A DNA stretch of 64,000 nucleotides, from assembly GCF_040419245.1 (NCBI RefSeq), contig NZ_JAZHOH010000001.1, forward strand, positions 3,720,001 through 3,784,000, given 5' to 3'. Made by a program: the position numbers and the translations under genes. The notes under the pieces are model-generated. The model had not been told where the DNA came from and did not search any database. It saw only the letters and a program-made list of their open reading frames with translations. This DNA comes from Ewingella sp. CoE-038-23. Its GTDB lineage: Bacteria > Pseudomonadota > Gammaproteobacteria > Enterobacterales > Enterobacteriaceae. Positions 49,842 to 64,000 of this stretch are shown here, piece by piece (positions within the stretch are counted from its first letter, which is position 1; every line of letters starts with the position of its first letter).

Positions 49842-50924
49842 ATGACCCAAGCCGCTGATAACACTGCCACTCAAACCCGGCAACGCCTCCACTTTACACG
49901 CCCGATACTGCTGGTGGGATTGCCCGTGCTGCTCACGCTGGTGGGCGGCGGCTACTTTCTGGCAACGCTAAATTCGGTTTCCACTGATAACGCGTATGCG
50001 CGAGTGGCGAAAACCGCCATTAACGCCAGAGTGTCGGGGCAGGTGGTCAATATTGCCGTGGTGGACAATGAGCCGGTGCGCAAGGGTCAGGTGCTGTTCC
50101 AGATAAACCCAGAGCCATTACAAATCGCAGTAAACCGGGCGCAGGCCCAGCTCAGCGTGGCTCGCCTGCGGATTGAAGGGCTGAAAACCAGCTACCGCGA
50201 ACAGCTGGCGGAGCTGCAATCAGCCCGCGAACAGGCCGATTTCGAGCAAAAGGATTTTGCCCGTAAAAAAGCCTTATTGGCGAATCAGTTTGTGTCGCAG
50301 TCGATGTACGAGCGCGCCGATACCGACCTGAAAGTCGCCCGCCAGCGCATCGCCTCCATTGAACAGCAGGTGGCGAATATTCTGGTATCCCTGAATGGCG
50401 ATCCAAATATCCACGTCGACAGCCACCCGGCGGTACGCGAGGCCCAGAGCCAGCTCGACGAGGCCCAGCTTTACCTCTCTTACGCCACCGTCAGCGCGCC
50501 AGAAGATGGCATTGTCACCAAGGTTGACGACTTACAGGTCGGCAACTTTATCAATAGCGGCGCGCCGGCCTTTGCCCTGCTGTCAAAGAAACACGTGTGG
50601 ATTGAGGCCAATTTCCGCGAAACCCAAATCAGCCAGATGCGCGCCGGGCAGTCGGCGACCGTGCATCTCGACAGCTACCCAGACCGGGCTTTTAAGGCCC
50701 GCGTGGTCAGCATGAGTCCGGGAGCTGGGTCTGACTTTTCCCTGCTGCCGCCGGAAAATGCCACGGGTAACTGGGTCAAAGTGGTGCAGCGCGTGCCGGT
50801 GCGCCTGGAACTGGAGGAGATAGCGACGCAAATCCCACTGTTTTCCGGCACCAGCGCCAGCGTACAAGTGGAAACCGGCAAGCATAGTTGGTGGCAAGCC
50901 TTAAGCGGGCTGATAGCAAAATGA
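49842..50924 (+). CDS. HlyD/EmrA-type membrane fusion protein
   Basis: Periplasmic adaptor of an MFS tripartite exporter, 360 residues from ATG 49842 (GTG 49830 is also open; neither has a good ribosome-binding site). One N-terminal membrane anchor (about 23-45), a lipoyl domain, a long coiled-coil hairpin (about 95-195) and a beta-barrel (VWIEANFRETQISQMRAGQ). The stop overlaps the MFS start as ATGA. Confidence 0.9.
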   Translation: MTQAADNTATQTRQRLHFTRPILLVGLPVLLTLVGGGYFLATLNSVSTDNAYARVAKTAINARVSGQVVNIAVVDNEPVRKGQVLFQINPEPLQIAVNRAQAQLSVARLRIEGLKTSYREQLAELQSAREQADFEQKDFARKKALLANQFVSQSMYERADTDLKVARQRIASIEQQVANILVSLNGDPNIHVDSHPAVREAQSQLDEAQLYLSYATVSAPEDGIVTKVDDLQVGNFINSGAPAFALLSKKHVWIEANFRETQISQMRAGQSATVHLDSYPDRAFKARVVSMSPGAGSDFSLLPPENATGNWVKVVQRVPVRLELEEIATQIPLFSGTSASVQVETGKHSWWQALSGLIAK

Positions 50925-52378
50925 GTCGCCGCGCGCTGCGTTTTGCCGCCCTGCTGGCGACCTATCTTCAGGCGATGAACCTGTCCATCCCCAACTCGGC
51001 ACTGCGTTTTATTCAGGGTGGCCTGTCGATGGCGGACGATCAGGCGGGCTGGATTTTCACCTCTTATCTGGCCGCCAGCGGCATTACCCTGCCGATTGCC
51101 CAGTGGCTCGCGGGCCGTTTTGGCTTGAAGAGGACCTATCTGGCGGCCTTAGCCACCTTTGCTTGCGGCCTATGGCTGGCGGCCACGGCCAATACCCCAC
51201 TGGGATTTATCGCCACGCGTATTGTTCAGGGCGCGGCCAGCGGCATTATTGCGCCCCTTTCCATGGCGATTGCGTTGGAAACCCTGCCCCCGGAGCGTCG
51301 CCCCCATTTTGCAGCGAGCTGGACCGCCATCGTGCTGCTCGGCATTGTCAGCGGCCCGGCGATTGGCGGCTGGCTGGCCGACGACTTTGGCTGGCCGTCG
51401 CTGTTTCTCACCAGCATTCCCTTGGTGGCGTTTATCGCCTTAGTGACCAGTCTGGATCTGCTGGAGAAAAAATCCGCGCAGCCCGCACGCTTTGATTTCT
51501 TTGGCTTTATCAGTTTTACCGCCGCCATTATCGGCCTGCAAATGGTGCTGGATCGAGGCGAACGGCTGGAGTGGTGGGACTCGCCAGAGATTTGGCTGGA
51601 AGCCGCCACGGCGCTGCTTGGGTTCTGTTGGTTGGTGGTGCACGTGCTGACTTCACCAAGCCATTTCCTCAGCAAAGCGCTGTTTCGCGATCGCAATTTT
51701 GTCTTGTGCACACTGCTGTTTTTCGCCGCCGGTTTTGTGCTGCTGCCGACCATGGCGCTGACTTCGCCGATGCTCGAGGAGCTGCTGGGCTACCCGCCCA
51801 TGACGACCGGCCTGCTGACCCTTCCTCGCGGCATCGGCATTGTCGGTGGGTTTGTATTGATGAGCCGCGCGCCGAGGGGGATTGACCGTCGGCTGGCGGT
51901 AGCGGCGGGAACCGCCACGGTGATTTATGCCAATGCCACGATGCTCGATTACTCGCCGTTAATGGATTGGCCGCCGGTGGCGATTGCCGGAGCGATTCAG
52001 GGCCTTGGGCTGGGGGTGTTAATGCCAGCTCTGAGCCATGTCGCCTTTAGCACCCTTGCCCCGCAGCTTCGCCCAGAAGGGGCCGGGCTGTTTAATTTAG
52101 CCCGCACCTATGGCAGCACTCTGGGGGTCGCCGTGGTGCAGGCGCTGTTTTTCAACCATACGCAGGCGCTGCACCTGGCTTTCGCCAGCCACCTGACGCC
52201 GTATTACTTCGCGGCTGATCGCATCCCCGCCGCCAATCTGCCACAGCTGGCGGCGCTGAATGAAGCCATCACCGGCCAGGCGGCGTTTATCGCCCTGATC
52301 GGCCAGTTCAAAACGTTAATGGTGGTGATGCTGGTGGTGAGTCCACTGGTGCTGCTGTTACGAAAACCCAGCCCGTAA
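50921..52378 (+). CDS. MFS drug exporter, DHA2 (EmrB/QacA) family
   Basis: 485 residues with about 14 membrane segments. It has the N-terminal GWIFTSYLAASGITLPIAQWLAGRF region typical of EmrB relatives. It is coupled to the EmrA-like adaptor by a four-base overlap and should export a drug or metabolite through the adaptor to an outer-membrane channel. The substrate is unknown. Confidence 0.9.
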   Translation: MSRRALRFAALLATYLQAMNLSIPNSALRFIQGGLSMADDQAGWIFTSYLAASGITLPIAQWLAGRFGLKRTYLAALATFACGLWLAATANTPLGFIATRIVQGAASGIIAPLSMAIALETLPPERRPHFAASWTAIVLLGIVSGPAIGGWLADDFGWPSLFLTSIPLVAFIALVTSLDLLEKKSAQPARFDFFGFISFTAAIIGLQMVLDRGERLEWWDSPEIWLEAATALLGFCWLVVHVLTSPSHFLSKALFRDRNFVLCTLLFFAAGFVLLPTMALTSPMLEELLGYPPMTTGLLTLPRGIGIVGGFVLMSRAPRGIDRRLAVAAGTATVIYANATMLDYSPLMDWPPVAIAGAIQGLGLGVLMPALSHVAFSTLAPQLRPEGAGLFNLARTYGSTLGVAVVQALFFNHTQALHLAFASHLTPYYFAADRIPAANLPQLAALNEAITGQAAFIALIGQFKTLMVVMLVVSPLVLLLRKPSP

Positions 52379-52400
52379 ATAGAACCCAAGAGGTCAGAAT

Positions 52401-53348
52401 ATGAGTACCCAAGACAGGCTCCGCGAGACAAGATTCCCGATTCAACACGGCAGCGGCGCGATGCCAGCGGCAGGGTTTGGCACGCTATTTAAGGATCTTA
52501 GCGTCACCACGCAGGCAGTAACAGAGGCGCTGGAGGCCGGTTTCCGCCACTTCGACTGCGCCGAGCGCTACCAAAATGAAGCTCAGGTTGGCGCGGCGTT
52601 TCAGCAGGCATTAGCCTCTGGAAAGGTTAGCCGCGAGCAGCTGTTTGTCACCACTAAGCTGTGGAATACCCACCATCGCCCGGAATATGTCGCCCCGGCT
52701 TTGGAGGCCAGCTGCCGCCGTTTGCAGGTGGACTATGTGGATTGTTATTTGATTCACACGCCATTTGCTTTCCAGCCGGGAGACAATCTCGACCCGCGCG
52801 ACGCCGAGGGGAAAGTGATTTATGACTCTGGCGTGACCTTACTCGAGACATGGCGGGCGATGGAGAAGCTGGTGGACGACGGGCGCTGCAGGGCTATCGG
52901 TTTGTCCGACATCACCCTGCCCGCGTTAAAACAGATTGTCGCCGACGCGCGCATCAAACCGGCGGTGGTGCAGGTGGAGTCCCACCCTTACCTGCCCGAG
53001 TGGGAGCTGCTGGAGTTTTGCCAACAGCAGGGCATTATCCTGCTGGCATTCGCCCCGCTGGGGCACGGCATGGAGCCGCGAGTGTTGGAGAATAACGTGA
53101 TCACCACAATCGCTCAGCAGGTGGAGAAAACCCCGGCGCAGGTGGCCTTGGCTTGGGCGGCGCAGCGCGGCACAGCGTTCCTGACCACGTCTACCCGCCG
53201 CAGCCACATTGAAGAAAACTGGGATATTTCGACCCTGCCGGAGAGCGCGCTGAGCAGAATGAAGCAGGAGATTACTACCCGCATTCGCCTGAACTCGGTG
53301 GTGGAGACGGGCGTGCCGGGCTTTATTCCCCAGAAGAAAAACGACTGA
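52401..53348 (+). CDS. Aldo/keto reductase
   Basis: 315-residue NADPH-dependent reductase with the full tetrad Asp52, Tyr57, Lys86 and His119. It starts 22 bases after the MFS stop with AGAGGTC upstream, so it is the third gene of the exporter operon. It may detoxify an aldehyde or ketone that is also an efflux substrate (inference). Confidence 0.9.
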   Translation: MSTQDRLRETRFPIQHGSGAMPAAGFGTLFKDLSVTTQAVTEALEAGFRHFDCAERYQNEAQVGAAFQQALASGKVSREQLFVTTKLWNTHHRPEYVAPALEASCRRLQVDYVDCYLIHTPFAFQPGDNLDPRDAEGKVIYDSGVTLLETWRAMEKLVDDGRCRAIGLSDITLPALKQIVADARIKPAVVQVESHPYLPEWELLEFCQQQGIILLAFAPLGHGMEPRVLENNVITTIAQQVEKTPAQVALAWAAQRGTAFLTTSTRRSHIEENWDISTLPESALSRMKQEITTRIRLNSVVETGVPGFIPQKKND

Positions 53349-53362
53349 TTGAATCAACAATG

Positions 53363-53383
53363 CCTCCCCGTTTACTGGGGAGG
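53363..53383. terminator. Hairpin between convergent genes, repeat-like
   Basis: CCTCCCC-gtttact-GGGGAGG is followed by TTTGGGGGATTTTG. It lies between the convergent aldo/keto reductase and diguanylate cyclase genes. Its design resembles the repeats at 24343 and 24486, so it may be a member of the same family doing terminator duty. Confidence 0.6.
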
Positions 53384-53415
53384 TTTGGGGGATTTTGCCG
53401 GGCGAAAGGAAAAAG

Positions 53416-54435
53416 TCAGGCCACGCGCCATCTTCTGCGGCGGTTTTTCTCTTCATACATCTGGGCGTCGGCTTCGCGCAGCGCCATGTCCGGCGTGCTG
53501 TCCGTTGGGTTGATGGCCACCGCGCCGATGCTCGGCCCGGCGTAATCAATCAGACAAGATTGCAGCTGATATTCGCCGGTCAGCAGTTCGGACAGGCGCT
53601 TTTTGAAAGCCTGCGCCGCCTGTTGAGCTTCGCTAAACTCCATCGGCCCGGCCCCCGCGACCACAAACTCATCGCCGCCCACGCGGGCCATCACTTCATC
53701 GCCGCGCACGCCCTCTTTCAGCCTCTCTCCCACCGCCACCAGAAAATCATCCCCCACTTCATGGCCGTGGAGGTCATTGATCTCTTTAAAATCATCCAGA
53801 TCGGCAAAGGCAATCAGCACATAGCGCGAAGTGGCGTGGGCCTGAGAAAACAGGGTCGGCAGCTGGTTGAACAGCGAACGGCGGTTCGGCAAGCCGGTCA
53901 GCTCATCGGTATAGCTGGCGGTGGTCAGCGCGTCGTTGGCGAGCTGTAATTTCTTCAACAACTGCTCGCTCTGGATCTGTTGAGCAATCAGGTTGGCGAA
54001 CAGCTGAAGCACCTGCTCGCTGCGCTCGGACAATTCGCGGTGTTCAGAGCTGGCGGCGCACAGCGTGCCGTACAGCGAGCCGTCGGCCAGCGTTACCGGC
54101 GTGCTGACATAGGTGGTGATCCCCAGCGCCCTCGCGGCTTCTGAATCCCCCCAAATCCCAGCAACGTCGCAGGTGTAGCGGCGGCCTTCGTCCAGCGCGC
54201 GCTTGCACAGGGTGTCTCCCCAAGGCACCGACAGCCCCTCGGGGATATGCATATTGCTGCCATTGCGGGAAAACAGAATGTGCTGCTGCCCGCCATCTTC
54301 GTCAATACGAGTCAGGTAGGTGGACTCCATATTGGTCACCAGCTCGAGCATCTCCAGCAACTGCCGAACCAGTCCTTCGAGCGTATATTCTGCTTCTAAC
54401 GCTGTCGAAATGCGTTCGAGAAGATTATCTGTCAT
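53416..54435 (-). CDS. GAF-GGDEF diguanylate cyclase
   Basis: 339 residues: GAF sensor domain about 20-155, then a GGDEF domain about 172-335. The active site is intact (GGDEF 253-257, with LDDF and GLPNR upstream), so it should make c-di-GMP. The inhibitory I-site position reads RGDE (244-247) and not RxxD. There is no membrane segment, so it is cytoplasmic. The GAF ligand is unknown. Start 54435. Confidence 0.92.
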   Translation of the reverse strand: MTDNLLERISTALEAEYTLEGLVRQLLEMLELVTNMESTYLTRIDEDGGQQHILFSRNGSNMHIPEGLSVPWGDTLCKRALDEGRRYTCDVAGIWGDSEAARALGITTYVSTPVTLADGSLYGTLCAASSEHRELSERSEQVLQLFANLIAQQIQSEQLLKKLQLANDALTTASYTDELTGLPNRRSLFNQLPTLFSQAHATSRYVLIAFADLDDFKEINDLHGHEVGDDFLVAVGERLKEGVRGDEVMARVGGDEFVVAGAGPMEFSEAQQAAQAFKKRLSELLTGEYQLQSCLIDYAGPSIGAVAINPTDSTPDMALREADAQMYEEKNRRRRWRVA

Positions 54436-54672
54436 ATGTCATGAAACCTTTGGTGGAGAGAGTCGAGCGGGTGCGAATTTTGAGAGCGAACGTTTTAACA
54501 TAAATTGCGCGCCCTCGACACGGGAGTTGAGCAAAAAATAATCGTTTAGCCATCAGGCGAGAAAGCTTCGCGTTCAGTTTGCGGCAATAGAGTAACAAGC
54601 TAGACTCTCGGCTGACAAACGTGGACCATAAGCTACCCCCTATGGTTAACGACACTTTTCCTTGAGACTTCA

Positions 54673-56304
54673 ATGAGAGACACCAAACAACCTTTTGCCA
54701 CGCGCAAACGCCCCATGAAACTGATGACGTCGGTCATTTTGATGATTGGCGCAGTGATCCTCTCCGTCCTGCTGGTTGTACATCTGCTCTATCTTATTCA
54801 GGTCAGCGATACCACCCGCGACGGCGTGAAAGAGAAGGCGCTGGCGGTGGCCCGCACGCTGGCTGACCTGCCGGAAATCAGGCGCGGGCTGACTCAGCCT
54901 TCGGACAGCGGCATCATTCAGCCAATTGCCGACGCGGCGCAGAAGAGAAATGACCTGCTGTTCGTGGTGGTGACCAACATGAGCGGCATTCGCTTCTCGC
55001 ATCCAAATAAAGAGGTGATCAGCCGCCGCTTTATTGGTGACGATATCAATCCAGCCTTGCAGGGCAAAGAAAATGTGGCGATCAATCACGGGGTGTTGGT
55101 GGAGGCGCTGCGGGTGTTCACGCCAGTTTATGATGACCAGCACAAGCAAATTGGCGTGGTGGCGATTGGCATTTCCCTCAGCAAAGTGACCGAGCAAATC
55201 AATAAGAGCCGCTGGAGCATTTTGTGGACCGTGCTGTTTGGTACGCTGGTCGGCGCACTGGGGACCTTCGCCTTGGTGAAGATGCTCAAACGCATCTTGT
55301 TCGGGCTGGAACCTTATGAAATATCGACGCTTTTTGAACAGCGGCAGGCGATGTTACAGTCGATCAAAGAGGGGGTGATTGCCGTAGACCAAGACGCGCG
55401 GGTGACGCTGATTAATCAGGAAGCGCGCCACCTGTTTGGCGAAACCGCCCCCGAGTTTTCCATTAATGTCGAAAACATCGGCGGCTCCCAGCCACTGATC
55501 CATAATCTTAACGACGTGCTGCAAACTGGCGTGCCGCGTCAGGATGAAGAGATCAATGTCAAAGGCCGTTTACTGCTGAGTAATACCGTGCCGGTGCGCA
55601 GCAATGGGGTGATTATCGGCGCTATCTGTACCTTCAGGGATAAGACCGAAGTCAGCCAGTTGATGCAGCGCCTGAGCGGCATGGTAAACTACGCCGATTC
55701 GCTGCGTGAGCGCTCGCACGAGTTTATGAACAAGCTGCACGTGATCCTCGGGTTACTGCACATGAAGAGCTACACGAAGCTTGAGGATTACATTCTCAAA
55801 ACGGCCAATAACTATCAGACAGAAATTGGCTCGTTGCTGTTAAAAATCAAATCGCCTGTTATTGCCGGTTTCTTGTTAAGCAAGATGAAACGCGCCACGG
55901 ATATGCACCATCAGCTGACGCTCAGCGATGATAGCCTGCTGCCCGACAATGCCAATGAAGATCAGGTGGCGGCGCTGATCACCGCGCTAGGTAATTTGAT
56001 TGAGAATGCGCTGGACGCTCTGGGCCAGCAGCCGAACGGAGAGATAAGCGTGTTGCTGCATTACCAGAATGGCTGGCTCGCTGGCGTGGTCAGCGATGAC
56101 GGCCCCGGCATTCCGCCTGAGCATATTGATGCTATTTTTGAGAAAGGGTTTTCGTCGAAAGGTGAAGAGCGCGGCGTCGGGTTATCCCTGGCGAAACAGC
56201 AAATTGAGAACCTTGGCGGAAGCATAAGCGTTGAGTCAGAACCTGACGTATACACCCAATTTTTTGTACAACTCCCGTGGGATAGTGAGAGGAAACCGGC
56301 ATGA
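54673..56304 (+). CDS. dcuS: C4-dicarboxylate/citrate sensor kinase DcuS
   Basis: Membrane sensor kinase that responds to fumarate, malate, succinate and citrate. 543 residues, same as E. coli. Two membrane segments (about 21-42 and 182-203) bracket the periplasmic PAS domain. Its ligand residues Arg107, His110, Arg147 and Phe149 are at E. coli numbers. A cytoplasmic PAS domain follows (about 215-325), then the phospho-acceptor His349 in RSHEFMNKLH and the HATPase (about 430-535, DDGPGI and GVGLSL). The stop overlaps dcuR. Confidence 0.96.
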   Translation: MRDTKQPFATRKRPMKLMTSVILMIGAVILSVLLVVHLLYLIQVSDTTRDGVKEKALAVARTLADLPEIRRGLTQPSDSGIIQPIADAAQKRNDLLFVVVTNMSGIRFSHPNKEVISRRFIGDDINPALQGKENVAINHGVLVEALRVFTPVYDDQHKQIGVVAIGISLSKVTEQINKSRWSILWTVLFGTLVGALGTFALVKMLKRILFGLEPYEISTLFEQRQAMLQSIKEGVIAVDQDARVTLINQEARHLFGETAPEFSINVENIGGSQPLIHNLNDVLQTGVPRQDEEINVKGRLLLSNTVPVRSNGVIIGAICTFRDKTEVSQLMQRLSGMVNYADSLRERSHEFMNKLHVILGLLHMKSYTKLEDYILKTANNYQTEIGSLLLKIKSPVIAGFLLSKMKRATDMHHQLTLSDDSLLPDNANEDQVAALITALGNLIENALDALGQQPNGEISVLLHYQNGWLAGVVSDDGPGIPPEHIDAIFEKGFSSKGEERGVGLSLAKQQIENLGGSISVESEPDVYTQFFVQLPWDSERKPA

Positions 56305-57020
56305 TCAATGTGCTGATAGTCGATGATGATGCCATGGTTGCAGAGCTTAACCGCTGTTATGTGACTCAGATTGAAGGGTTTACCTGCACTGGCGTGGCCT
56401 CAACCTTACAACAAGCCAAAGATCTGGTGTTGAATCCTCAACATCCTATCGACCTTATTTTGCTTGATGTCTATATGCAGCAGGAGAACGGGCTGGATTT
56501 GCTTCCCGTACTGCGCGATGCCGGTCGGCCAATCGACGTGATTGTGATCTCCTCCGCCGCCGATGCCGCCACCATAAAGAAGTCACTGAACTACGGCGTG
56601 GTGGATTACCTGATCAAGCCTTTCCAGTTCCCGCGTTTTGAAGAGGCCCTGACCCACTGGCAGCAGAAGAAAACGCTGATGGATCACCATCAGTATTATG
56701 AGCAGTCTGACGTGGATCGCCTGATACACGGCGAGCCGCAGACCACGTCTGACAACAAAAAGCTGCCGAAGGGCTTAACGCCGCAGACCCTGCGCACCCT
56801 GTGCCAGTGGATTGACGCCCATCCTGACACCGAGTTCTCCACCGATGAGCTGGCGCACTCGGTGAATATCTCGCGCGTTTCCTGCCGTAAATACCTGATT
56901 TGGCTGGCTGACAGCCATATCCTGTTCACCAGCATTCACTACGGGGTGACGGGAAGGCCGGTCTATCGCTATCGGCTGCAAGAAGATCATCACGCCCTGC
57001 TAAAACAGTATTGCCAGTAG
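56301..57020 (+). CDS. dcuR: Response regulator DcuR
   Basis: 239-residue CitB-family response regulator. The receiver domain has Asp8-Asp10 and the phospho-acceptor Asp56 (LLDVYM). The C-terminal helix-turn-helix is in GLTPQTLRTLCQWID to SRVSCRKYL. Translationally coupled to dcuS (ATGA). In E. coli it activates the dcuB, fumB and frd genes under anaerobic growth with dicarboxylates. Here the neighbouring fumarate reductase, transporter and fumarase genes are the natural targets. Confidence 0.96.
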   Translation: MINVLIVDDDAMVAELNRCYVTQIEGFTCTGVASTLQQAKDLVLNPQHPIDLILLDVYMQQENGLDLLPVLRDAGRPIDVIVISSAADAATIKKSLNYGVVDYLIKPFQFPRFEEALTHWQQKKTLMDHHQYYEQSDVDRLIHGEPQTTSDNKKLPKGLTPQTLRTLCQWIDAHPDTEFSTDELAHSVNISRVSCRKYLIWLADSHILFTSIHYGVTGRPVYRYRLQEDHHALLKQYCQ

Positions 57021-57031
57021 TAATTGGGGAA

Positions 57032-57991
57032 TTAGCGCAGCAGCTGGTAGCTATTATCCAGCAGCGTGAAGCCAAACTGGCGCTGTGATGAGCAGACAAT
57101 CTGCCGCTGTTTAGTGACAAAAATCGCCTCGATATGTGCAAGGTCTTGCAGATACTCGAGGCTTTTTTCTACCCCCATGCCATACAGCAGCGTGGTGTAG
57201 ATATCGCCGTCGATGGAATCCTCAGAAATCACCGTCACGCTCTGTAACTCGTTATCCAGCGGATACCCGGTTTTCGGGTCGAGAATATGATGATAGCGGC
57301 GGCCGTCCAGCTCAAAATAACGCTCGTAGATACCCGACGTAACCACCGATTTGTTGCTGACGTGGATCACGCCTAGCAGCGCATCTTCGGCGGCAAACGG
57401 CTTTTTCAGCCCAATCCCCCACCCCTGTTCCCCACTGGCGCCCAGCGTCTGGACATTGCCGCCGAGGTTAATCAGCCCGTGCGGCACCTGCTCGGACAGC
57501 AGGAAATCCCTCACCACGTCGGCAATATAACCTTTGGCTATCGCGCCTAAGTCGATCTCCATTCCGGCGTATTGCAGGAAGACGGAGCGCGCGGTGTCAT
57601 CGAGCACCACGTCATGGGGATTGGTCAGGGCGAGCAGGCTTTGCAGGTCGCTGGCGGCGGGCACGCTGTGGCCGCTAAAGCCAATTTTCCAGCGTTTTAC
57701 CACAGGGCCGATAGTGAAGTTGAACAGGCTGTCTTCGAGCAAACTCACGGCCTTGGCGCGTTTTATCAGCTCGTAAACCGGCGGGCTAACCACCACCGGG
57801 TGGCTGCCCGCCGCGTGGTTTATCGTCATCACTTCAGAGTGCGGGCGATTGACCGTGAAGATGTTCTCTTGCTGTTTGATCAGCCGGAAAACGCGTGACG
57901 CCAGACTCTCATTATGTTCAAACAGCTTGAGCAGAATGGGGGAACCCATCAGCACGGCGGAGTAAGCATAAATTCGATCGTCTGGCGTCAT
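57032..57991 (-). CDS. apbE: Cytoplasmic ApbE-type FMN transferase
   Basis: 319-residue flavin transferase that attaches FMN from FAD through a phosphodiester bond to Thr/Ser in D-x-x-(S/T)-G-A-(T/S) motifs. Family motifs: LGAIAKGYIAD (148-158), LINLGGN (173-179) and HHILDPKTGYP (about 243-253). Unlike usual ApbE proteins it has neither signal peptide nor lipobox, so it acts in the cytoplasm. It lies 66 bases downstream of the fumarate reductase gene on the same strand, whose product carries the target motif, so that protein is the likely substrate. Converges on dcuR. Confidence 0.93.
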   Translation of the reverse strand: MTPDDRIYAYSAVLMGSPILLKLFEHNESLASRVFRLIKQQENIFTVNRPHSEVMTINHAAGSHPVVVSPPVYELIKRAKAVSLLEDSLFNFTIGPVVKRWKIGFSGHSVPAASDLQSLLALTNPHDVVLDDTARSVFLQYAGMEIDLGAIAKGYIADVVRDFLLSEQVPHGLINLGGNVQTLGASGEQGWGIGLKKPFAAEDALLGVIHVSNKSVVTSGIYERYFELDGRRYHHILDPKTGYPLDNELQSVTVISEDSIDGDIYTTLLYGMGVEKSLEYLQDLAHIEAIFVTKQRQIVCSSQRQFGFTLLDNSYQLLR

Positions 57992-58057
57992 AGCGTTATC
58001 TCGTCAATCAAGTGGATAAAGCCTGCGCGCCGGGGAGGCGACACAGGCTATTCGCCG

Positions 58058-60835
58058 TTATTTCATCGAGAAGCGAGCGGCGTTGCGTCCTGCAAGAATA
58101 CCGAAGATGATGATATCCGCAACGGCATTACCGCCAATTCGGTTGCCGCCGTGGATGCCTCCGACCACTTCACCGGCTGCGAAAGCGCCGTTCAGCGCCT
58201 GCTGCTGGCTGTCCAGCACGCAGGTTTCGGTGTTAATGGTCACGCCGCCCATGGTGTGGTGAACCCCCGGCGCGATGCGGATGGCGTAGAACGGCCCCTG
58301 ATTGATTGGGTGGCGCATCGCCGTGGTGCGGCCGAATTCGGCGTCGTGCTGCTTATCCACTGCGACATTGTAAGTCTCGAGGGTGGCGAGGAAGGCGTGG
58401 AAATCCATCTCCAGCTTGTTAGCCAGCTCGCGCGGAGACTCGGCGCTAATCACAAAACCGCGCGCGATATACTCATCGGCAGCCTTGTTGTTCAGTCGAA
58501 CTTGCTCATCAAATACCACGTAAGCATATTTTTCCGGCTGGGCAATGATTTGCTCCGAGACTTTGTCGCGGGTTTCCATCTCATTAAAGAAGCGTTTACC
58601 GGCCTGATTGACCAGAATCGCCCCGCCGCCGCGAATGGCTTCTGAAATCAGGTAAGAGGTGGTTTGCTCAACCGTTGGGTGGATTTGAATTTCGCCCATA
58701 TCCACAGTATCTGCGCCGATGTTCTGCAAAATCGCGATACCGCCGCCGGTTGCGCCTTTATGGTTGGTGGTGACGAAGCCGTCCAACTCAGGGCGATATT
58801 TCACCACCATGTCGCGGTTGGCGCTGAAGCCACCAGTGGCCACAATCACGCTTTTAGCATTGATGGTCAGCACTTCGTTTTCATCGTTTAACAGCTCTAC
58901 GCCCTGCACTGCGCCCTGCTCATAACGAATCTGAGTCACCGAGGTATCGAGCATCACGTCGATATTGCGTTTGTTGAGGTTCTTCACCAGGCCGCTAATC
59001 AGGAAGCCACCCACCGCGCTGCGATCCGCCGGGCGATGAGTACGGTCGATGCTCATCCCGCCGGTGATGGTGATATCACTCAGCTCGATGTCGTGTTCGG
59101 CTAGCCACTCCACGGCCTGCGGCGCGCGCTCGACGAACTCTCTCAGCAAGACCTGATTGTTCTTGAACTGGCCGCCTTTCAGGCTCTCTTGGTAGAACAG
59201 CTCTTTGCTGTCTTCAATGCCTTTGAGTTTCTGGAAACGCGTTTCCGCCGCGTTCATGCCGACAGAGGCTTTGATGGTGTTGCCGCCGATGGTGGACATT
59301 TTCTCCACCACCAGCACTTTCGCCCCTTCATCACAGGCTTGGATCGCCGCGGCCAAACCCGCACCGCCGCTGCCGACCACCACCACGTCATAGCTTTGCG
59401 GCGCTGACGGGCTGCCGCCCTCTTCCAGCAGCTGGGCTTTGCAGGATTTAGCAATAGCTTTTGAAACGGCTTTCTTCACGGCTTCGCTTTGCGTGGTCGC
59501 GCCGGTGACGGCGTCCACGTGCGGGCTGTTAGCATCCAGAATGCGGCTGCGGATGATTTCGAAGCTGGTGGTGAAGGCCACGTCTAGCTCGGCATCGGCA
59601 TCCAGCTCGATGTCAGCAATGCGGTCAGTTTCCAGACTGACGTTAATGGCCAGCTGATGGGTATCGTCCTGCACTTTTTCATTAAAGACGCCGGCTTTGA
59701 ATTTTTTCGACGTCATGCTCATGTCGCGGATCATCGCGTCGACCAGCGAGAAGCGCCACAGCGGCTGCGGGATGGTCAAAGCTTCGCGCTGGGTGCTGTC
59801 GATAAATAGCTCGAGTTTCTTATCTTGGGTGATGCGATCCGCCCAATCTGGATAAGCGATGCAGGCTTTGCCGACCGCCACCATGTCATAACCGTGCTCC
59901 AGCGCCAGCTCGGCATCTTCCATATTCACCACGCCACCGACGCCCATCACCGGCACTTTAGCCAGCGTCTCAGAGCGCATCGCGACATATTTGTCGATCA
60001 GCGGCGTTGGATCTTGGCTATCAACAATCGAAGGACGTAGGGTATAGCCGACGGAGAAGTGCAGGTAATCCACACCGCGCGCCGCCAACTTTTCCAGCAG
60101 GTACATGGTGTCAGCGAAGCGAATGCCCGGCTCTTCAATCTCTTCTGGTGAGAAGCGGTAGCCGATAATGAAAGAAGGATCGGCGTATTGCTGCGCCATC
60201 TGGTGGGTGATTTCCAGCACCGCTAGCGGGAATTTGGCGCGGTTTTCGCGGCTGCCGCCCCATTGGTCGGTGCGCTGGTTGGAGTTTGGTGAGAAGAACT
60301 GCTGAATCAGGTAGGTGTTGGCGCCGTGGATCTCCACGCCGTCGAATCCGGCTTCAATGGCGCGACGCACGCCTTCGCCAAACTTAGCAATCATGCCGTC
60401 CACTTCTTCCGTGGTCAGCGCGATGGGGGTGGCGGCACCTTCACGCGGCGCGGCCAGCGCGCTCGGCGCGACCGGAGACTGGCCGCCAATCAGTTTTGGC
60501 TCGGTCATGCGGCCGCCGTGATAAATCTGCAATACGGCTTTTGAACCTTTCTCTTTGATTGCTTGCGCAATTTTAGCCAGCCCCGGCACTTTGCTGTCGG
60601 TGTCGATACCAATGGCGCCGGGGAAGGCCAGACCTTTGTCGTCGATAAAGCAGCACTCGACGATAACCGTGCCGATGCTACCAGCACGGGCGCGGTAGTA
60701 TTCCACCAGCTCGCTGTTGACTGAGCCGTCGTAAAAGCCGGTGCAGGTGGTCATCGGTGCCATCAGCAAACGGTTTTTCAACGCGGTGCCGTTTGGCAGA
60801 GTAATAGGACTCAATAACCGATCGCGATTTTTCAT
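58058..60835 (-). CDS. Soluble NADH:fumarate reductase (OYE - FMN_bind - FAD_binding_2)
   Basis: 925-residue three-domain flavoprotein. Residues about 5-355 are an Old Yellow Enzyme-like NADH:flavin oxidoreductase barrel (HGAN, His170 and Asn173). About 375-465 is an FMN_bind domain whose DAVTGATT (441-448) is an ApbE flavinylation motif with Thr447 as expected acceptor. About 482-920 is a fumarate reductase flavoprotein domain (GSGGAG 488-493, IQIHPT with His719, TRDK with Arg756, GGNRIGGNA). There is no signal or heme site. As I recall, an enzyme of this layout from Klebsiella pneumoniae reduces fumarate with NADH. ATG 60835 has GGAG nine bases upstream; an in-frame TTG at 60850 is disfavoured. 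Confidence 0.9.
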   Translation of the reverse strand: MKNRDRLLSPITLPNGTALKNRLLMAPMTTCTGFYDGSVNSELVEYYRARAGSIGTVIVECCFIDDKGLAFPGAIGIDTDSKVPGLAKIAQAIKEKGSKAVLQIYHGGRMTEPKLIGGQSPVAPSALAAPREGAATPIALTTEEVDGMIAKFGEGVRRAIEAGFDGVEIHGANTYLIQQFFSPNSNQRTDQWGGSRENRAKFPLAVLEITHQMAQQYADPSFIIGYRFSPEEIEEPGIRFADTMYLLEKLAARGVDYLHFSVGYTLRPSIVDSQDPTPLIDKYVAMRSETLAKVPVMGVGGVVNMEDAELALEHGYDMVAVGKACIAYPDWADRITQDKKLELFIDSTQREALTIPQPLWRFSLVDAMIRDMSMTSKKFKAGVFNEKVQDDTHQLAINVSLETDRIADIELDADAELDVAFTTSFEIIRSRILDANSPHVDAVTGATTQSEAVKKAVSKAIAKSCKAQLLEEGGSPSAPQSYDVVVVGSGGAGLAAAIQACDEGAKVLVVEKMSTIGGNTIKASVGMNAAETRFQKLKGIEDSKELFYQESLKGGQFKNNQVLLREFVERAPQAVEWLAEHDIELSDITITGGMSIDRTHRPADRSAVGGFLISGLVKNLNKRNIDVMLDTSVTQIRYEQGAVQGVELLNDENEVLTINAKSVIVATGGFSANRDMVVKYRPELDGFVTTNHKGATGGGIAILQNIGADTVDMGEIQIHPTVEQTTSYLISEAIRGGGAILVNQAGKRFFNEMETRDKVSEQIIAQPEKYAYVVFDEQVRLNNKAADEYIARGFVISAESPRELANKLEMDFHAFLATLETYNVAVDKQHDAEFGRTTAMRHPINQGPFYAIRIAPGVHHTMGGVTINTETCVLDSQQQALNGAFAAGEVVGGIHGGNRIGGNAVADIIIFGILAGRNAARFSMK

Positions 60836-61314
60836 AATAATTAACTCCAACCTAAAGTGTTTAATATTTTGTGAATTCGGTATCGGATTAATTAATTCTT
60901 TTTAGTTAGTCTCCGTTCTCATAGTATTAATATATTACTTTCTTTAGTTTCATAATCTCTAACCTTAGTTATTTAACTATTTACCTATTAATATCCCGCT
61001 GCATTTATTAATGCATTGTTAAATGACAAATAGAATGATCACATTTAATCAAACACTCACCAGCTTTATATTTAATTAGGAAAAAATGCTTTATCAAGAA
61101 TGAGACGCAATAACCCGACACAAGCCATCAATTAAAATAACCCTTTAAAATCATAAAACTAAAATCAACCACACTTCCCCAGAGTATGACCAATGATTAC
61201 GGGAGCAAGCATTTCATACTAAAATTCCTATCTTAATTTCACTTAGTATCACTCCCACCAAAATTAACCTTTATTTTTGTGCATGATTAAAAAGAAAAAT
61301 ATAAATAGCTTTTC

Positions 61315-61328
61315 TTGATCCAGATCAA
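61315..61328. promoter_or_regulatory. FNR box
   Basis: TTGATCCAGATCAA matches the FNR consensus TTGAT-N4-ATCAA at all ten defined bases. It lies about 270 bases before the transporter start and 480 bases before the fumarate reductase start, and points to anaerobic control. Confidence 0.85.
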
Positions 61329-61425
61329 AAGTAATAAACAGGAAAATCGCATTATATAAATAACTTCTCCCCATTAAGGGGGATAACCCTACCAAATAAT
61401 GAATATCAATAATGGAGCAACGTAA

Positions 61426-61464
61426 ATGCCGCCATTAAATAGCTTAAGAAAGTTAAGTAACTAA
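61426..61464 (+). CDS. Possible 12-residue leader peptide
   Basis: ATG 61426 has GGAG at 61414-61417, eight bases upstream, and reads MPPLNSLRKLSN before a TAA. It lies 131 bases before the transporter start. A translated leader in an anaerobic operon would be interesting, but such short frames also occur by chance. No terminator hairpin was found between it and the transporter. Confidence 0.25.
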   Translation: MPPLNSLRKLSN

Positions 61465-61595
61465 AAAAATCAAAAATACGCTGACTTTATTACGCACATC
61501 AACCCAACAGAGCCGTTAAGAGCCCGCAGTGACCTCCCTGCCGCTCGCGAGATCTTGGGTACTCAGAATTCTCAACTACTTGTTAGGTCAAACCT

Positions 61596-63107
61596 ATGAC
61601 TGATATCTCTAAAACGATGGTGACACCTCCGGTTAGCAAAGTTTCAGGCGGTAAAAAAAACCGCCTGATGATGATGCTTATGCCCATTCTGGTAACCGTA
61701 ATTCTGTTGTTTATCCCAGTCCCTGAAGGCTTGCAGCCTCACGCATGGCACTTCTTCGCCGTGTTCGTCGGTGTCATTGTCGGTCTGATTTTTGAGCCTC
61801 TGCCTGGCGCGGTGATTGGCCTGACCGGCGTGGTGGTGATTGCGCTGTTCAGCCAGTGGCTGCTGTTTAGCCCGGCTGAGCTGGCTGACCCGAAATTCAA
61901 AATGGCGGCGCAGTCCTTTAAATGGGCAGTGAGCGGCTTCGGCAACTCCACCGTGTGGCTTATCTTCGGCGCATTCATGTTTGCCGCGGGCTACGATAAA
62001 ACCCAGTTCGGTCGCCGTCTGGCACTGATTCTGGTGAAATATCTTGGCCGCCGCAGCCTGACGCTAGGTTACGCCATCGCCTTCGCGGATCTGCTTCTGG
62101 CGCCTTTCACTCCGTCAAACACGGCGCGCAGCGGCGGGACTATTTACCCAATCATTGCTAACTTACCGCCGCTGTACGGTTCAAAACCGAATGACCCAAG
62201 TGCGCGTAAAATCGGCTCTTATCTGATGTGGGTCGCTATCACCGCAGCCTGTATCACCAGCTCCATGTTCCTCTCCGCGCTGGCACCTAACTTGCTGGCA
62301 CTGGGCATCGTTAACAGCATCACCGGCATCAATATCTCTTGGGGAATGTGGTTCTTCGCCTTCCTGCCAGTGGGTCTGTTGTTACTGCTGACCATGCCGC
62401 TGCTGGCTTACTGGCTCTACCCGCCGGAAGTCAAAGTGAATGATGAAGTGCCGCGCTGGGCCACCGCCGAGCTGGCCAAACTGGGCAAAATGTCCCGTCA
62501 TGAAATCCTGCTGCTGGTCTTTGTATGCTGCGCCCTGATGATGTGGATTTTCGCCGCCAGCTTCATTGAACCTGCGATGGCTGCCCTGTTGGTAGTGGTG
62601 CTGATGCTGTGGACCGGCGTATTGAACTGGAACGACATCACCAGCAACAAACCGGCGTGGAACACCTTCGCGTGGTTCGCCACATTGGTGGCTCTGGCCG
62701 ACGGCTTATCTCGCACCGGCTTCATCTCTTGGTTAGGTAAAGAAGGCGCGCTGCTGATGGGCGGCATCTCTCCGGGAACAGCGACCATCGTGCTGCTGCT
62801 GGCGTTCTACCTGCTGCACTACCTGTTTGCCAGCACCACCGCGCACACCACGGCGCTGCTGCCTGCGATGCTGACCATCGGTGCCGCTATCCCAGGCATC
62901 AATCTGCAAGTCTTCTGCCTGCTGATGGTGACGTCTCTGGGTGTGATGGGGATCATCACTCCATACGGTACTGGCCCAAGCCCGATTTACTACGGCAGCG
63001 GTTATCTGCCAACCAAAGACTACTGGCGCCTAGGCACCATCTTCGGCGCACTGTTCTTAGCCGCCCTGCTGTTTATCGGCTACCCTTGGATGGCCATGCT
63101 GTTCTAA
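61596..63107 (+). CDS. DASS-family dicarboxylate/citrate transporter (CitT/TtdT-like)
   Basis: 503-residue inner-membrane carrier with about 12 segments, aligned throughout with E. coli CitT (citrate/succinate antiporter) and TtdT. Signature segments: APFTPSNTARSGGT, the ASTTAHT repeat and ITPYGTGPSPIYYG. The context (DcuSR, fumarate reductase, fumarase) suggests exchange of an external C4/C6 acid such as malate, tartrate or citrate for succinate. Start 61596 has TTAGG upstream. The exact substrate is inference. Confidence 0.9.
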   Translation: MTDISKTMVTPPVSKVSGGKKNRLMMMLMPILVTVILLFIPVPEGLQPHAWHFFAVFVGVIVGLIFEPLPGAVIGLTGVVVIALFSQWLLFSPAELADPKFKMAAQSFKWAVSGFGNSTVWLIFGAFMFAAGYDKTQFGRRLALILVKYLGRRSLTLGYAIAFADLLLAPFTPSNTARSGGTIYPIIANLPPLYGSKPNDPSARKIGSYLMWVAITAACITSSMFLSALAPNLLALGIVNSITGINISWGMWFFAFLPVGLLLLLTMPLLAYWLYPPEVKVNDEVPRWATAELAKLGKMSRHEILLLVFVCCALMMWIFAASFIEPAMAALLVVVLMLWTGVLNWNDITSNKPAWNTFAWFATLVALADGLSRTGFISWLGKEGALLMGGISPGTATIVLLLAFYLLHYLFASTTAHTTALLPAMLTIGAAIPGINLQVFCLLMVTSLGVMGIITPYGTGPSPIYYGSGYLPTKDYWRLGTIFGALFLAALLFIGYPWMAMLF

Positions 63108-63172
63108 AGGAGGATTAATTTGACACTCAAGCCATTAACAGAGCTTTTACTCAAATAAAACATCCCCAGCCT

Positions 63173-63201
63173 GTTGCCAGCCAATCACCTTGGCTGGCAA
63201 C
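63173..63201. repeat. Perfect 12-base-pair hairpin between transporter and fumarase
   Basis: GTTGCCAGCCAA, five bases, then TTGGCTGGCAAC. No T run follows, so transcription could continue into the fumarase gene. It may set relative expression or protect the upstream message. Confidence 0.7.
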
Positions 63202-63298
63202 ATACACACGAATAAAAACGTCGCCCCCGATCTACCCGAAGATCACTCCAGGAAATCGCTGTACCCATGGCGGCAATAACGGATTAAGTGAGAAAACA

Positions 63299-64000
63299 AT
63301 GTCGAATAAAACTTTCCATTATCAAGATCCATTCCCTCTCGCCAAAGAGGACACCGAATATTATCTGTTAACCCGTGACCACGTTTCCGTTAGCCAGTTT
63401 GATGGCGAAGAAGTGCTGAAAGTCGCGCCAGAAGGTCTGACTTTGCTGGCACAGCAAGCCTTCCACGACGCCTCTTTCATGCTGCGCCCGGCTCACCAGA
63501 AACAAGTGGCGGCCATTCTTGATGACCCGGAAGCCAGCGAGAACGACCGTTACGTCGCGCTGCAATTCCTCAGAAACTCCGAAATCGCCGCCAAAGGCGT
63601 GTTGCCAACCTGTCAGGACACCGGCACGGCGATCATCATGGGTAAAAAAGGTCAACGCGTCTGGACCGGCGGTGGCGACGAAGCCGCGCTTTCCAAAGGC
63701 GTGTACAACACCTTTATCGAAGATAACCTGCGCTACTCGCAAAACGCCCCGCTGGATATGTATAAAGAGGTGAACACTGGCACCAACCTGCCAGCGCAGA
63801 TCGACCTCTACAGCGTAGATGGCGACGAATACAAATTCCTCTGCGTCGCCAAAGGCGGCGGCTCGGCGAACAAAACCTATCTGTATCAAGAAACTAAGGC
63901 GCTGATCACTCCGGCCAAGCTGAAAGATTATCTGGTCGATAAAATGCGTACTTTGGGAACGGCTGCCTGCCCGCCGTACCATATCGCCTTCGTGATTGGC
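63299..64000 (+). CDS. fumA: Class I fumarate hydratase (FumA/FumB), 3' end outside window
   Basis: The first 234 codons of an oxygen-labile [4Fe-4S] fumarase that interconverts malate and fumarate. The N terminus [20 protein letters not shown] and the run to the window edge match E. coli FumA/FumB almost residue for residue. Cys105 ([10 protein letters not shown]), a cluster ligand, is present. E. coli FumA and FumB have 548 residues, so more than half lies beyond 64000. The anaerobic context suggests a FumB-like role: making fumarate from malate for the reductase. The ribosome-binding site is weak (AAGTGAGAAAA). Confidence 0.95.

What the first reader, a model, noticed from the sequence alone, without database searches (positions are those of the whole stretch)
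54673..64000. One-locus cytoplasmic fumarate respiration-like module under DcuSR and FNR
Seven genes that fit one task are grouped: sensor and regulator for C4-dicarboxylates, a flavin transferase lacking an export signal, a soluble three-flavin fumarate reductase, a dicarboxylate carrier and a class I fumarase, with an FNR box in the middle. In E. coli fumarate reduction is membrane-bound and quinol-linked (FrdABCD), and these functions are scattered. Here the design would regenerate NAD+ directly in the cytosol without energy conservation, letting the cell ferment malate, citrate or tartrate-type acids to succinate. A similar reductase is known from Klebsiella; the complete regulatory and transport cassette is what merits attention.
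Basis: partly seen in the sequence, partly recalled or inferred. Interest (0 to 1): 0.75.

Follow-up and report, generated by a model that had tools for sequence, protein, structure and literature searches.

The report
DcuSR-linked NADH fumarate reductase cassette
One stretch of this Ewingella-type genome carries a two-part acid sensor, a flavin-attaching enzyme, a soluble fumarate reductase, an acid carrier and a fumarase, a six-gene set kept in the same order in many related bacteria including Klebsiella, and it is predicted to let cells without oxygen pass surplus electrons from NADH straight to fumarate and release succinate.

Summary
The genes are DcuS, DcuR, an ApbE without export signal, a three-domain reductase (FRD), a DASS carrier nearest TtdT, and a class I fumarase, with a perfect FNR box in the 760-bp divergent gap. 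FRD occurs in 93 of 392 family genomes; of their 104 FRD loci, 61 show the whole cassette and 6 more are cut by contig ends. K. pneumoniae has it too, and its enzyme is already reported as a soluble NADH-dependent fumarate reductase. E. coli has the same frame, fumB-dcuB-dcuR-dcuS, with DcuB instead of DASS and no FRD-ApbE. DcuS lies beside FRD (66 genomes) or DcuB (28), never both. New here: the FNR box is nearly invariant (perfect in 69 of 81 gaps), and a palindrome TAGTT-N4-AACTA before FRD, a candidate DcuR operator, is present within one mismatch in 58 of 64 loci with DcuR and 0 of 17 without; relatedness leaves few independent contrasts. The enzyme kind is known; operator, carrier swap and a carrier co-sensor role are untested leads.

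The parts
54673..56304 (+). DcuS, C4-dicarboxylate sensor histidine kinase, 543 aa; H349, and R107, H110, R147, F149 (ligand contacts as recalled) at the same numbers as in E. coli
   Evidence: NF008298 828.8 bits, cut-off 520; 69% to E. coli DcuS; PDB 3by8 alignment; positions
56301..57020 (+). DcuR response regulator, 239 aa, D56 present
   Evidence: NF007750 454.7 bits, cut-off 262; 74% to E. coli DcuR
57032..57991 (-). ApbE-family FAD:protein FMN transferase, no signal sequence seen at the N-terminus (read by eye)
   Evidence: PF02424 274.9 bits; the genome's only other ApbE starts with a lipoprotein-like signal
58058..60835 (-). FRD, predicted three-flavin NADH:fumarate oxidoreductase, 925 aa
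   Evidence: PF00724, PF04205, PF00890; FAD domain aligns to flavocytochrome c3 fumarate reductase, E 5.4e-115
59813..60817 (-). OYE-like (Oxidored_FMN) domain of FRD, likely NADH site
   Evidence: PF00724, residues 7-341
59495..59515 (-). flavinylation motif DAVTGAT (residues 441-447) inside FMN_bind
   Evidence: motif rule D-x-x-[ST]-G-A-[ST] from PMC12052999 passage
58121..59389 (-). FAD_binding_2 fumarate-reducing domain; IHPT, ETRDK, HHTMGG and GGNRIGGN blocks present
60966..60979 (.). palindrome TAGTT-ATTT-AACTA upstream of FRD: candidate DcuR operator; TTAGTT half-sites start at 60965 and 60944, 21 bp apart
   Evidence: only perfect match in the window; conserved in FRD-type cassettes
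61315..61328 (.). FNR box TTGATCCAGATCAA
61450..61463 (.). weaker copy of the palindrome (1 mismatch) upstream of the carrier
   Evidence: within 1 mismatch in 14 of 64 loci with DcuR, 1.95 expected
60836..61595 (.). 760-bp AT-rich divergent control region
   Evidence: no Rfam match up to E 0.1
61596..63107 (+). DASS-family carrier, predicted dicarboxylate:succinate antiporter
   Evidence: TIGR00785 498.7 bits; 56% to E. coli TtdT, 50% to CitT, no hit to DcuB at 1e-10
63299..64000 (+). class I (Fe-S) fumarase, complete as 549 aa beyond the window end
   Evidence: 88% to E. coli FumB; the only PF05681 hit of the genome

Best explanation
The locus is a six-gene cassette, of the kind also found in Klebsiella pneumoniae, that is predicted to take up malate or fumarate in exchange for succinate and to reduce fumarate with NADH in the cytoplasm, likely switched on by missing oxygen (FNR) and by C4-dicarboxylates (DcuSR). 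Shown by sequence: gene identity, order, conservation, the FNR box and the palindrome. Inferred: the carrier (nearest TtdT) imports malate or fumarate against succinate; fumarase makes fumarate from malate; the ApbE without export signal attaches FMN to the DAVTGAT motif; electrons run NADH, FMN of the OYE domain, covalent FMN, FAD, fumarate. FNR would act mainly on the carrier-fumarase operon, since its box would sit near -41.5 from a conserved TATAAT-like element, and phosphorylated DcuR mainly on FRD-ApbE through TAGTT-N4-AACTA. The likely use is NADH re-oxidation beside, not instead of, the membrane FrdABCD that the genome keeps.
For: Domains and families; fumarate-site blocks shared with flavocytochrome c3; flavinylation motif; two ApbE in the genome, one with and one without a signal-like start. 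The same six genes in the same order in 61 of 104 FRD loci, plus 6 cut by contig ends, from 93 FRD-bearing of 392 genomes; complete in 25 of 44 named enterobacterial loci. A K. pneumoniae record carries the cassette with perfect FNR box and palindrome and has no second FRD place at 1e-100; the K. pneumoniae enzyme is reported as soluble, flavinylated by a cytoplasmic ApbE, NADH-dependent and independent of the electron transport chain (passages of PMC12052999, PMC11325843). FNR box perfect in 69 of 81 gaps, 0.3 expected. Palindrome within 1 mismatch in 58 of 64 loci with DcuR and 0 of 17 without. FRD and DcuS co-occur: DcuS in 83 of 93 FRD genomes against 63 of 299 others. A malic enzyme and an AEC transporter are near 10 of 104 loci, where malate dismutation would balance NADH.
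Against: No activity, transport, binding or expression was measured. FrdABCD is present in the genome, so need for the cassette is unproven. The palindrome is not shown to bind DcuR: E. coli dcuB has only a 1-mismatch copy (shuffle P 0.05), frdA and dctA none within 1 mismatch, and only 3 of 10 other DcuB loci have one within 1 mismatch, two of them near-copies of E. coli; a DcuR footprint in EHEC LEE1 reads differently (passage). In the window itself two matches within 1 mismatch are reached by 11 of 100 shuffles. With relatedness allowed for, the link of palindrome and DcuSR rests on 4 independent pairs, about 3 for and 0 against, p 0.25. The sigma-70 scan calls no promoter at the positions I propose and finds no more than shuffles do. 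15 of 44 named loci have FRD-ApbE without DcuSR, so DcuSR is not essential to the reductase. An FNR gene was not searched for.
Confidence: 0.8

Rival explanations
1. The reductase acts mainly on another unsaturated acid (acrylate, urocanate or cinnamate type), and fumarate is a side substrate.
For: Related proteins with this FAD domain include a urocanate reductase (6t85). One residue of the site block differs from flavocytochrome c3 (SEAIRG against TEAVRG).
Against: Best match by far is the fumarate reductase flavocytochrome c3 (5.4e-115 against 1.8e-83 for urocanate reductase); the K. pneumoniae enzyme, called fumarate reductase in the passages seen, has the same Ser variant in the record read; fumarase, DcuSR and a TtdT-like carrier adjoin.
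Confidence: 0.06
2. The grouping is a loose neighbourhood of C4-dicarboxylate genes kept by descent, without joint regulation of FRD by DcuR or FNR.
For: DcuSR was not seen in 37 of 104 FRD loci (2 of these are cut right behind FRD); few independent contrasts for the palindrome.
Against: Order and strand kept over 26 genus codes among the 64 gaps with DcuR; FRD and DcuS are both on 74 Pantoea and 12 Rahnella plasmid records, with the full order read in one of them; FNR box and palindrome conserved far above shuffles.
Confidence: 0.1
3. The enzyme runs the other way in vivo, as a succinate dehydrogenase, or is a general ene-reductase of the OYE kind.
For: The OYE domain aligns with ene-reductases.
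Against: FNR box and fumarase point to anaerobic fumarate supply; the genome has another complex-II-type flavoprotein frame of 589 aa, probably SdhA (name inferred); flavocytochrome c3 relatives are one-way fumarate reductases (recalled).
Confidence: 0.04

Closest known systems
Soluble NADH:fumarate oxidoreductase of Klebsiella pneumoniae with its own cytoplasmic ApbE (Bertsova 2014, 2020; not read, known here from passages of PMC12052999 and PMC11325843 and from recall)
   Same: Cytoplasmic ApbE next to it, same six-gene cassette with FNR box and palindrome in a K. pneumoniae record; FRD 77% identical over residues 118-921
   Different: No structural difference found; in the record used, fumarase and FRD are each split over two frames and unannotated
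E. coli fumB-dcuB-dcuR-dcuS locus
   Same: Same order and strand of fumarase, carrier, DcuR, DcuS; FumB 88%, DcuR 74%, DcuS 69%
   Different: Carrier is DcuB, not DASS; no FRD or ApbE between; E. coli uses membrane FrdABCD encoded elsewhere
E. coli TtdT and CitT (DASS antiporters for succinate)
   Same: 56% and 50% identity
   Different: Linked there to tartrate dehydratase and citrate lyase, here to fumarase and FRD
Shewanella flavocytochrome c3 fumarate reductase
   Same: FAD domain and fumarate-site blocks
   Different: Periplasmic and haem-fed (recalled); here OYE and FMN_bind domains precede it
Gilliamella frd (PMC11325843, passages)
   Same: Full-length FRD beside ApbE in Gilliamella-like genomes (genus inferred)
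   Different: About 67% identity; other DASS type; no DcuSR near in the two loci read with long flanks

Membership tests
K. pneumoniae-type soluble NADH:fumarate oxidoreductase | OYE + FMN_bind + FAD_binding_2 in one chain | tested here: met
   that this set defines the K. pneumoniae enzyme is recalled
K. pneumoniae-type soluble NADH:fumarate oxidoreductase | D-x-x-[ST]-G-A-[ST] flavinylation motif in FMN_bind | tested here: met
   DAVTGAT, residues 441-447
K. pneumoniae-type soluble NADH:fumarate oxidoreductase | ApbE without export signal | tested here: met
   N-terminus read by eye, other ApbE has lipoprotein-like start; no signal-peptide program was run
K. pneumoniae-type soluble NADH:fumarate oxidoreductase | fumarate-site residues of flavocytochrome c3 | tested here: met
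   His, Arg, His, Arg blocks kept, one Thr to Ser; residue roles recalled
K. pneumoniae-type soluble NADH:fumarate oxidoreductase | NADH as donor, covalent FMN, anaerobic induction by fumarate or malate | not testable with these tools
   needs enzyme and transcript assays
DcuSR two-component system | curated DcuR cut-off and DcuS/MalK subfamily cut-off | tested here: met
   454.7 over 262; 828.8 over 520
DcuSR two-component system | C4-dicarboxylate contacts in the periplasmic domain, H349, D56 | tested here: met
   contacts recalled
DcuSR two-component system | transporter co-regulator (DcuB or DctA) | tested here: inconclusive
   no DcuB; a DctA homologue 86% identical with the LD-X3-L-X3-L pattern is present
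E. coli-type fumB-dcuB-dcuR-dcuS locus | DcuB beside DcuSR | tested here: not met
Membrane quinol:fumarate reductase FrdABCD | FrdB and membrane subunits beside the flavoprotein | tested here: not met
   not in this locus; frdABCD lies elsewhere in the genome
TtdT/CitT-like DASS antiporter | DASS family and closest identity to TtdT among the E. coli carriers compared | tested here: met
   (compared: TtdT, CitT, YbhI, DcuB)
TtdT/CitT-like DASS antiporter | exchange for succinate | not testable with these tools
   needs transport assay

The most novel reading that the evidence does not exclude
Enterobacteria carry two mutually exclusive builds of the DcuSR locus. In one, DcuB feeds quinol-linked FrdABCD. 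In the other, a DASS antiporter replaces DcuB both as carrier and as the structural co-sensor that holds DcuS in its ligand-responsive state, and DcuR reads TAGTT-N4-AACTA operators to drive an NADH-linked soluble reductase. The E. coli locus may even be a stripped descendant of the cassette: same order and strand, a long dcuB-dcuR gap where FRD-ApbE sits in relatives, and one relative (L245) caught with a decaying FRD-ApbE in that place.
Probability: 0.3. Interest if true: 0.62.

Novelty: new member of a known kind. Interest (0 to 1): 0.42.

Why it matters
It gives the known K. pneumoniae enzyme a genomic and regulatory frame: carrier, fumarase, sensor, two candidate switch sites and a wide host range. 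It also offers an NADH-linked, quinone-independent succinate route with its own predicted import and export, of use for succinate production and for understanding anaerobic life of plant and gut enterobacteria.

Tried and rejected
Rejected: that the FNR box alone is evidence; two perfect matches occur in the 64-kb window, and 26 of 100 shuffles give as many matches (3) within 1 mismatch, so only conservation counts. Rejected: a global FRD versus DcuB exclusion; over 392 genomes the two are unlinked (28/65/77/222, p 0.42), only adjacency to DcuS (within 12 kb) is exclusive. Not settled: E. coli locus derived from the cassette; on a chosen set of 49 loci, holding the 35 cassette-type and derived DcuS+DcuR rows together costs 0.11 log units, p-AU 0.49. 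Not supported: E. coli dcuB, frdA and dctA promoters as proof of the palindrome. Papers on the cassette as such: none recognised in the listings of open-licence searches; a 2025 paper on DcuSR in K. pneumoniae (PMC12772337) has no occurrence of 'fumarate reductase', 'frd' or 'apbE' in its main text; the two Bertsova papers themselves were not seen. No Rfam match up to E 0.1 in 50000-64000. The promoter scan found 2 sites in 60700-61700 against 3.6 in shuffles. Structure prediction was not run, as it would not decide donor or regulation.
Full report
WHAT IS THERE. DcuS and DcuR overlap by 4 bp; ApbE and FRD run the other way; a 760-bp AT-rich gap separates FRD from the carrier, which is followed by a class I fumarase that leaves the window and is complete in L064. 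The host is Ewingella-like: FRD is 99% identical to Ewingella americana ATCC 33852. DcuR and DcuS pass their curated cut-offs and keep the E. coli positions of R107, H110, R147, F149, H349 and D56 (the four ligand contacts are recalled). The carrier is a DASS protein, 56% to TtdT and 50% to CitT, with no match to DcuB. FRD has OYE, FMN_bind and FAD_binding_2 domains, the motif DAVTGAT and a FAD domain nearest to flavocytochrome c3 fumarate reductase.

THE REST OF THE GENOME. There is one DcuS (the next hit is 30%), one class I fumarase, two ApbE proteins, the other one with a lipoprotein-like start, one PF03605 carrier that is only 38% like DcuB and so probably DcuA, a DctA homologue of 86%, and frdABCD at 83, 84, 67 and 81% to E. 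coli. A second FRD (77%) with a divergent second DASS (85%) lies near a mutS-like gene (named by eye), without ApbE, DcuSR or fumarase around it. It must borrow the cassette's ApbE if it is flavinylated in the cytoplasm (inference).

CONSERVATION. One search gave 52 named loci; 44 are enterobacterial with FRD (L004-L047), 7 are from other phyla and match mainly the FAD domain (L048-L054), and L055 is a broken match. Of the 44, 25 have all five neighbours (Ewingella, Rahnella, Hafnia psychrotolerans, Mangrovibacter, Rouxiella, Erwinia, Pantoea), 4 are cut by contig ends, 1 lacks only DcuSR and 14 (Dickeya, Pectobacterium, Brenneria roseae) show FRD-ApbE without the others. In the family sample, 93 of 392 genomes have FRD (E at most 1e-250), in 35 of 154 genera, with 104 loci. 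All 104 were read with flanks of up to about 8.5 kb: 61 have fumarase, DASS, FRD, ApbE, DcuR, DcuS in that order and strand (4 with an extra OYE-like hit, 1 with FRD and ApbE each in two pieces); 6 more are cut by contig ends; 12 are DASS-FRD pairs, 11 of them second copies in genomes that also hold the cassette; 10 show FRD-ApbE; 6 lack only DcuSR; the other 9 are smaller variants or cut. The cassette also lies on large plasmids: FRD matches 98 plasmid records, 90 of them over at least 80% of its length, mostly Pantoea (74), Rahnella (12) and Duffyella (3); DcuS matches 74 Pantoea and 12 Rahnella records too. Only Rahnella pRAHAQ01 was read in full. The one K. pneumoniae record there is 5.37 Mb and so looks like a chromosome; it holds the cassette with a perfect FNR box and palindrome, though its fumarase and FRD are each in two frames.

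E. COLI COMPARED. E. coli K-12 has fumB, dcuB, dcuR, dcuS contiguous on one strand, with 570 bp between dcuB and dcuR. The cassette is the same frame with DcuB replaced by DASS and FRD-ApbE set on the opposite strand in the carrier-dcuR gap. DcuS was found in 146 of 392 genomes: within 12 kb of FRD in 66, of DcuB in 28, of both in 0, of neither in 52. Of 20 further loci read, one (L245) has fumarase, DASS, DcuR and DcuS with only remnants of FRD and ApbE between them, and four (L247, L249-L251) have DcuSR next to a different DASS of 33-34%, three of them from genomes with FRD elsewhere. In a tree of DcuS (87 rows) and one of DcuS+DcuR (49 chosen rows), four of five lone DcuSR and the decayed locus sit inside cassette groups, which reads as losses; the fifth (L248) does not. 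Two of the DcuB-adjacent rows (L239, L240) group with the soft-rot type, so DcuB linkage did not arise once only, or was lost. The other DcuB rows, with E. coli, form one group whose place, inside or beside the cassettes, is not resolved (p-AU 0.49).

CONTROL REGION. In 81 of the 104 loci the FRD-DASS gap could be extracted; the 23 others lack DASS, are cut, or failed the script's open-frame check. The FNR consensus is perfect in 69 and within one mismatch in 79 of 81, against 0.3 and 4.85 in single-base shuffles. Alignment of 43 cassette gaps shows a TATAAT-like element placed so that the FNR box would sit near -41.5 of a carrier promoter (my reading of positions, not called by the promoter scan). 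The next best block is TAGTT-N4-AACTA about 140 bp before FRD. It is perfect in 52 and within one mismatch in 58 of 64 loci with DcuR nearby, and within one mismatch in 0 of 17 loci without (shuffle expectation 0 and 2.3 of 64). Successive AACTAA half-sites on the FRD side are 21 bp apart in 36 cases. In the window, matches within one mismatch occur only twice, once before each divergent gene, though 11 of 100 shuffles reach two. By type, FRD-type loci with DcuR have it in 55 of 56 and Pantoea/Erwinia-type (FRD2) in 3 of 8; without DcuR 0 of 4 and 0 of 13. Against: relatedness leaves only 4 independent pairs, p 0.25, and E. coli DcuR targets do not clearly share it. I therefore call it a candidate operator.

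CO-SENSOR QUESTION. In E. coli, DcuS without DctA or DcuB is permanently on, and the TM2/PAS linker binds the transporter (PMC8307970, abstract and passages). The linker here reads FALVKMLKRILFG against CILVKVLKKILFG, so the partner site looks kept while DcuB is gone. The DASS carrier is the natural candidate anaerobically, but the DctA homologue keeps the LD-X3-L-X3-L tail, so this stays open.

KNOWN OR NEW. That K. pneumoniae has a cytoplasmic ApbE needed to flavinylate a soluble fumarate reductase is stated in PMC12052999 (passage); that this enzyme is NADH-dependent and independent of the electron transport chain is stated in PMC11325843 (passage), citing Bertsova 2020. From recall only, that paper also reports induction under anaerobiosis with fumarate or malate. 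So the enzyme kind is known, and the Ewingella locus is a new member. I recognised no paper on the DcuSR cassette in the listings of the searches named under Tried and rejected, in an open-licence library only.

METABOLIC READING. Malate to fumarate by fumarase, fumarate to succinate with NADH, succinate out against malate. In 10 of 104 loci homologues of the Rahnella NAD-dependent malic enzyme and AEC transporter lie within the fetched flanks; there, two malate would give pyruvate, CO2 and succinate with NADH balanced. This is inference from gene content.

Noticed in passing
L065:6038-10927 (own genome C1:728038-732927): Second FRD (77%) with a divergent second DASS carrier near a mutS-like gene, with a one-mismatch FNR box and no ApbE, DcuSR or fumarase; of 12 such DASS-FRD pairs, 11 are second copies in genomes with the cassette.
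   Followed up: partly
L080-L095, L125, L130 (family f27, genus g61; GC 0.32-0.37, 2.2-3.1 Mb): In 16 of 16 genomes examined (of 25 g61 genomes with FRD), FRD has ApbE beside it and the start of a DASS carrier behind that. PMC11325843 (passage) says no fumarate transporter gene was identified in 95 Gilliamella genomes; this carrier is a candidate. That g61 is Gilliamella is my inference.
   Followed up: partly
L245:1412-9070: Decaying cassette: FRD remnant (residues 1-188) and ApbE remnant between DASS and DcuR, while the neighbours match over full length. Described only.
   Followed up: partly
L253 (K. pneumoniae CP125156.1, 5.37 Mb, listed as a plasmid): Record labelled plasmid is chromosome-sized; its fumarase and FRD each lie in two frames and are unannotated, possibly assembly error.
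   Followed up: no
L252:1711-4836 (Rahnella pRAHAQ01): NAD-dependent malic enzyme and AEC transporter next to the fumarase; homologues of both lie near 10 of 104 FRD loci.
   Followed up: partly
L249-L251, L247: DcuSR beside a different DASS carrier (33-34%), a third build of the DcuSR locus.
   Followed up: no
window 53416-54435: GAF-GGDEF diguanylate cyclase-like gene beside DcuS; a close homologue beside DcuS was seen only in E. americana ATCC 33852, and a 67% homologue lies near FRD-ApbE in L116.
   Followed up: no
L055: Type-B symbiont of Plautia stali: weak, broken match to FRD with a fumarase nearby; looks like gene loss in a symbiont.
   Followed up: no
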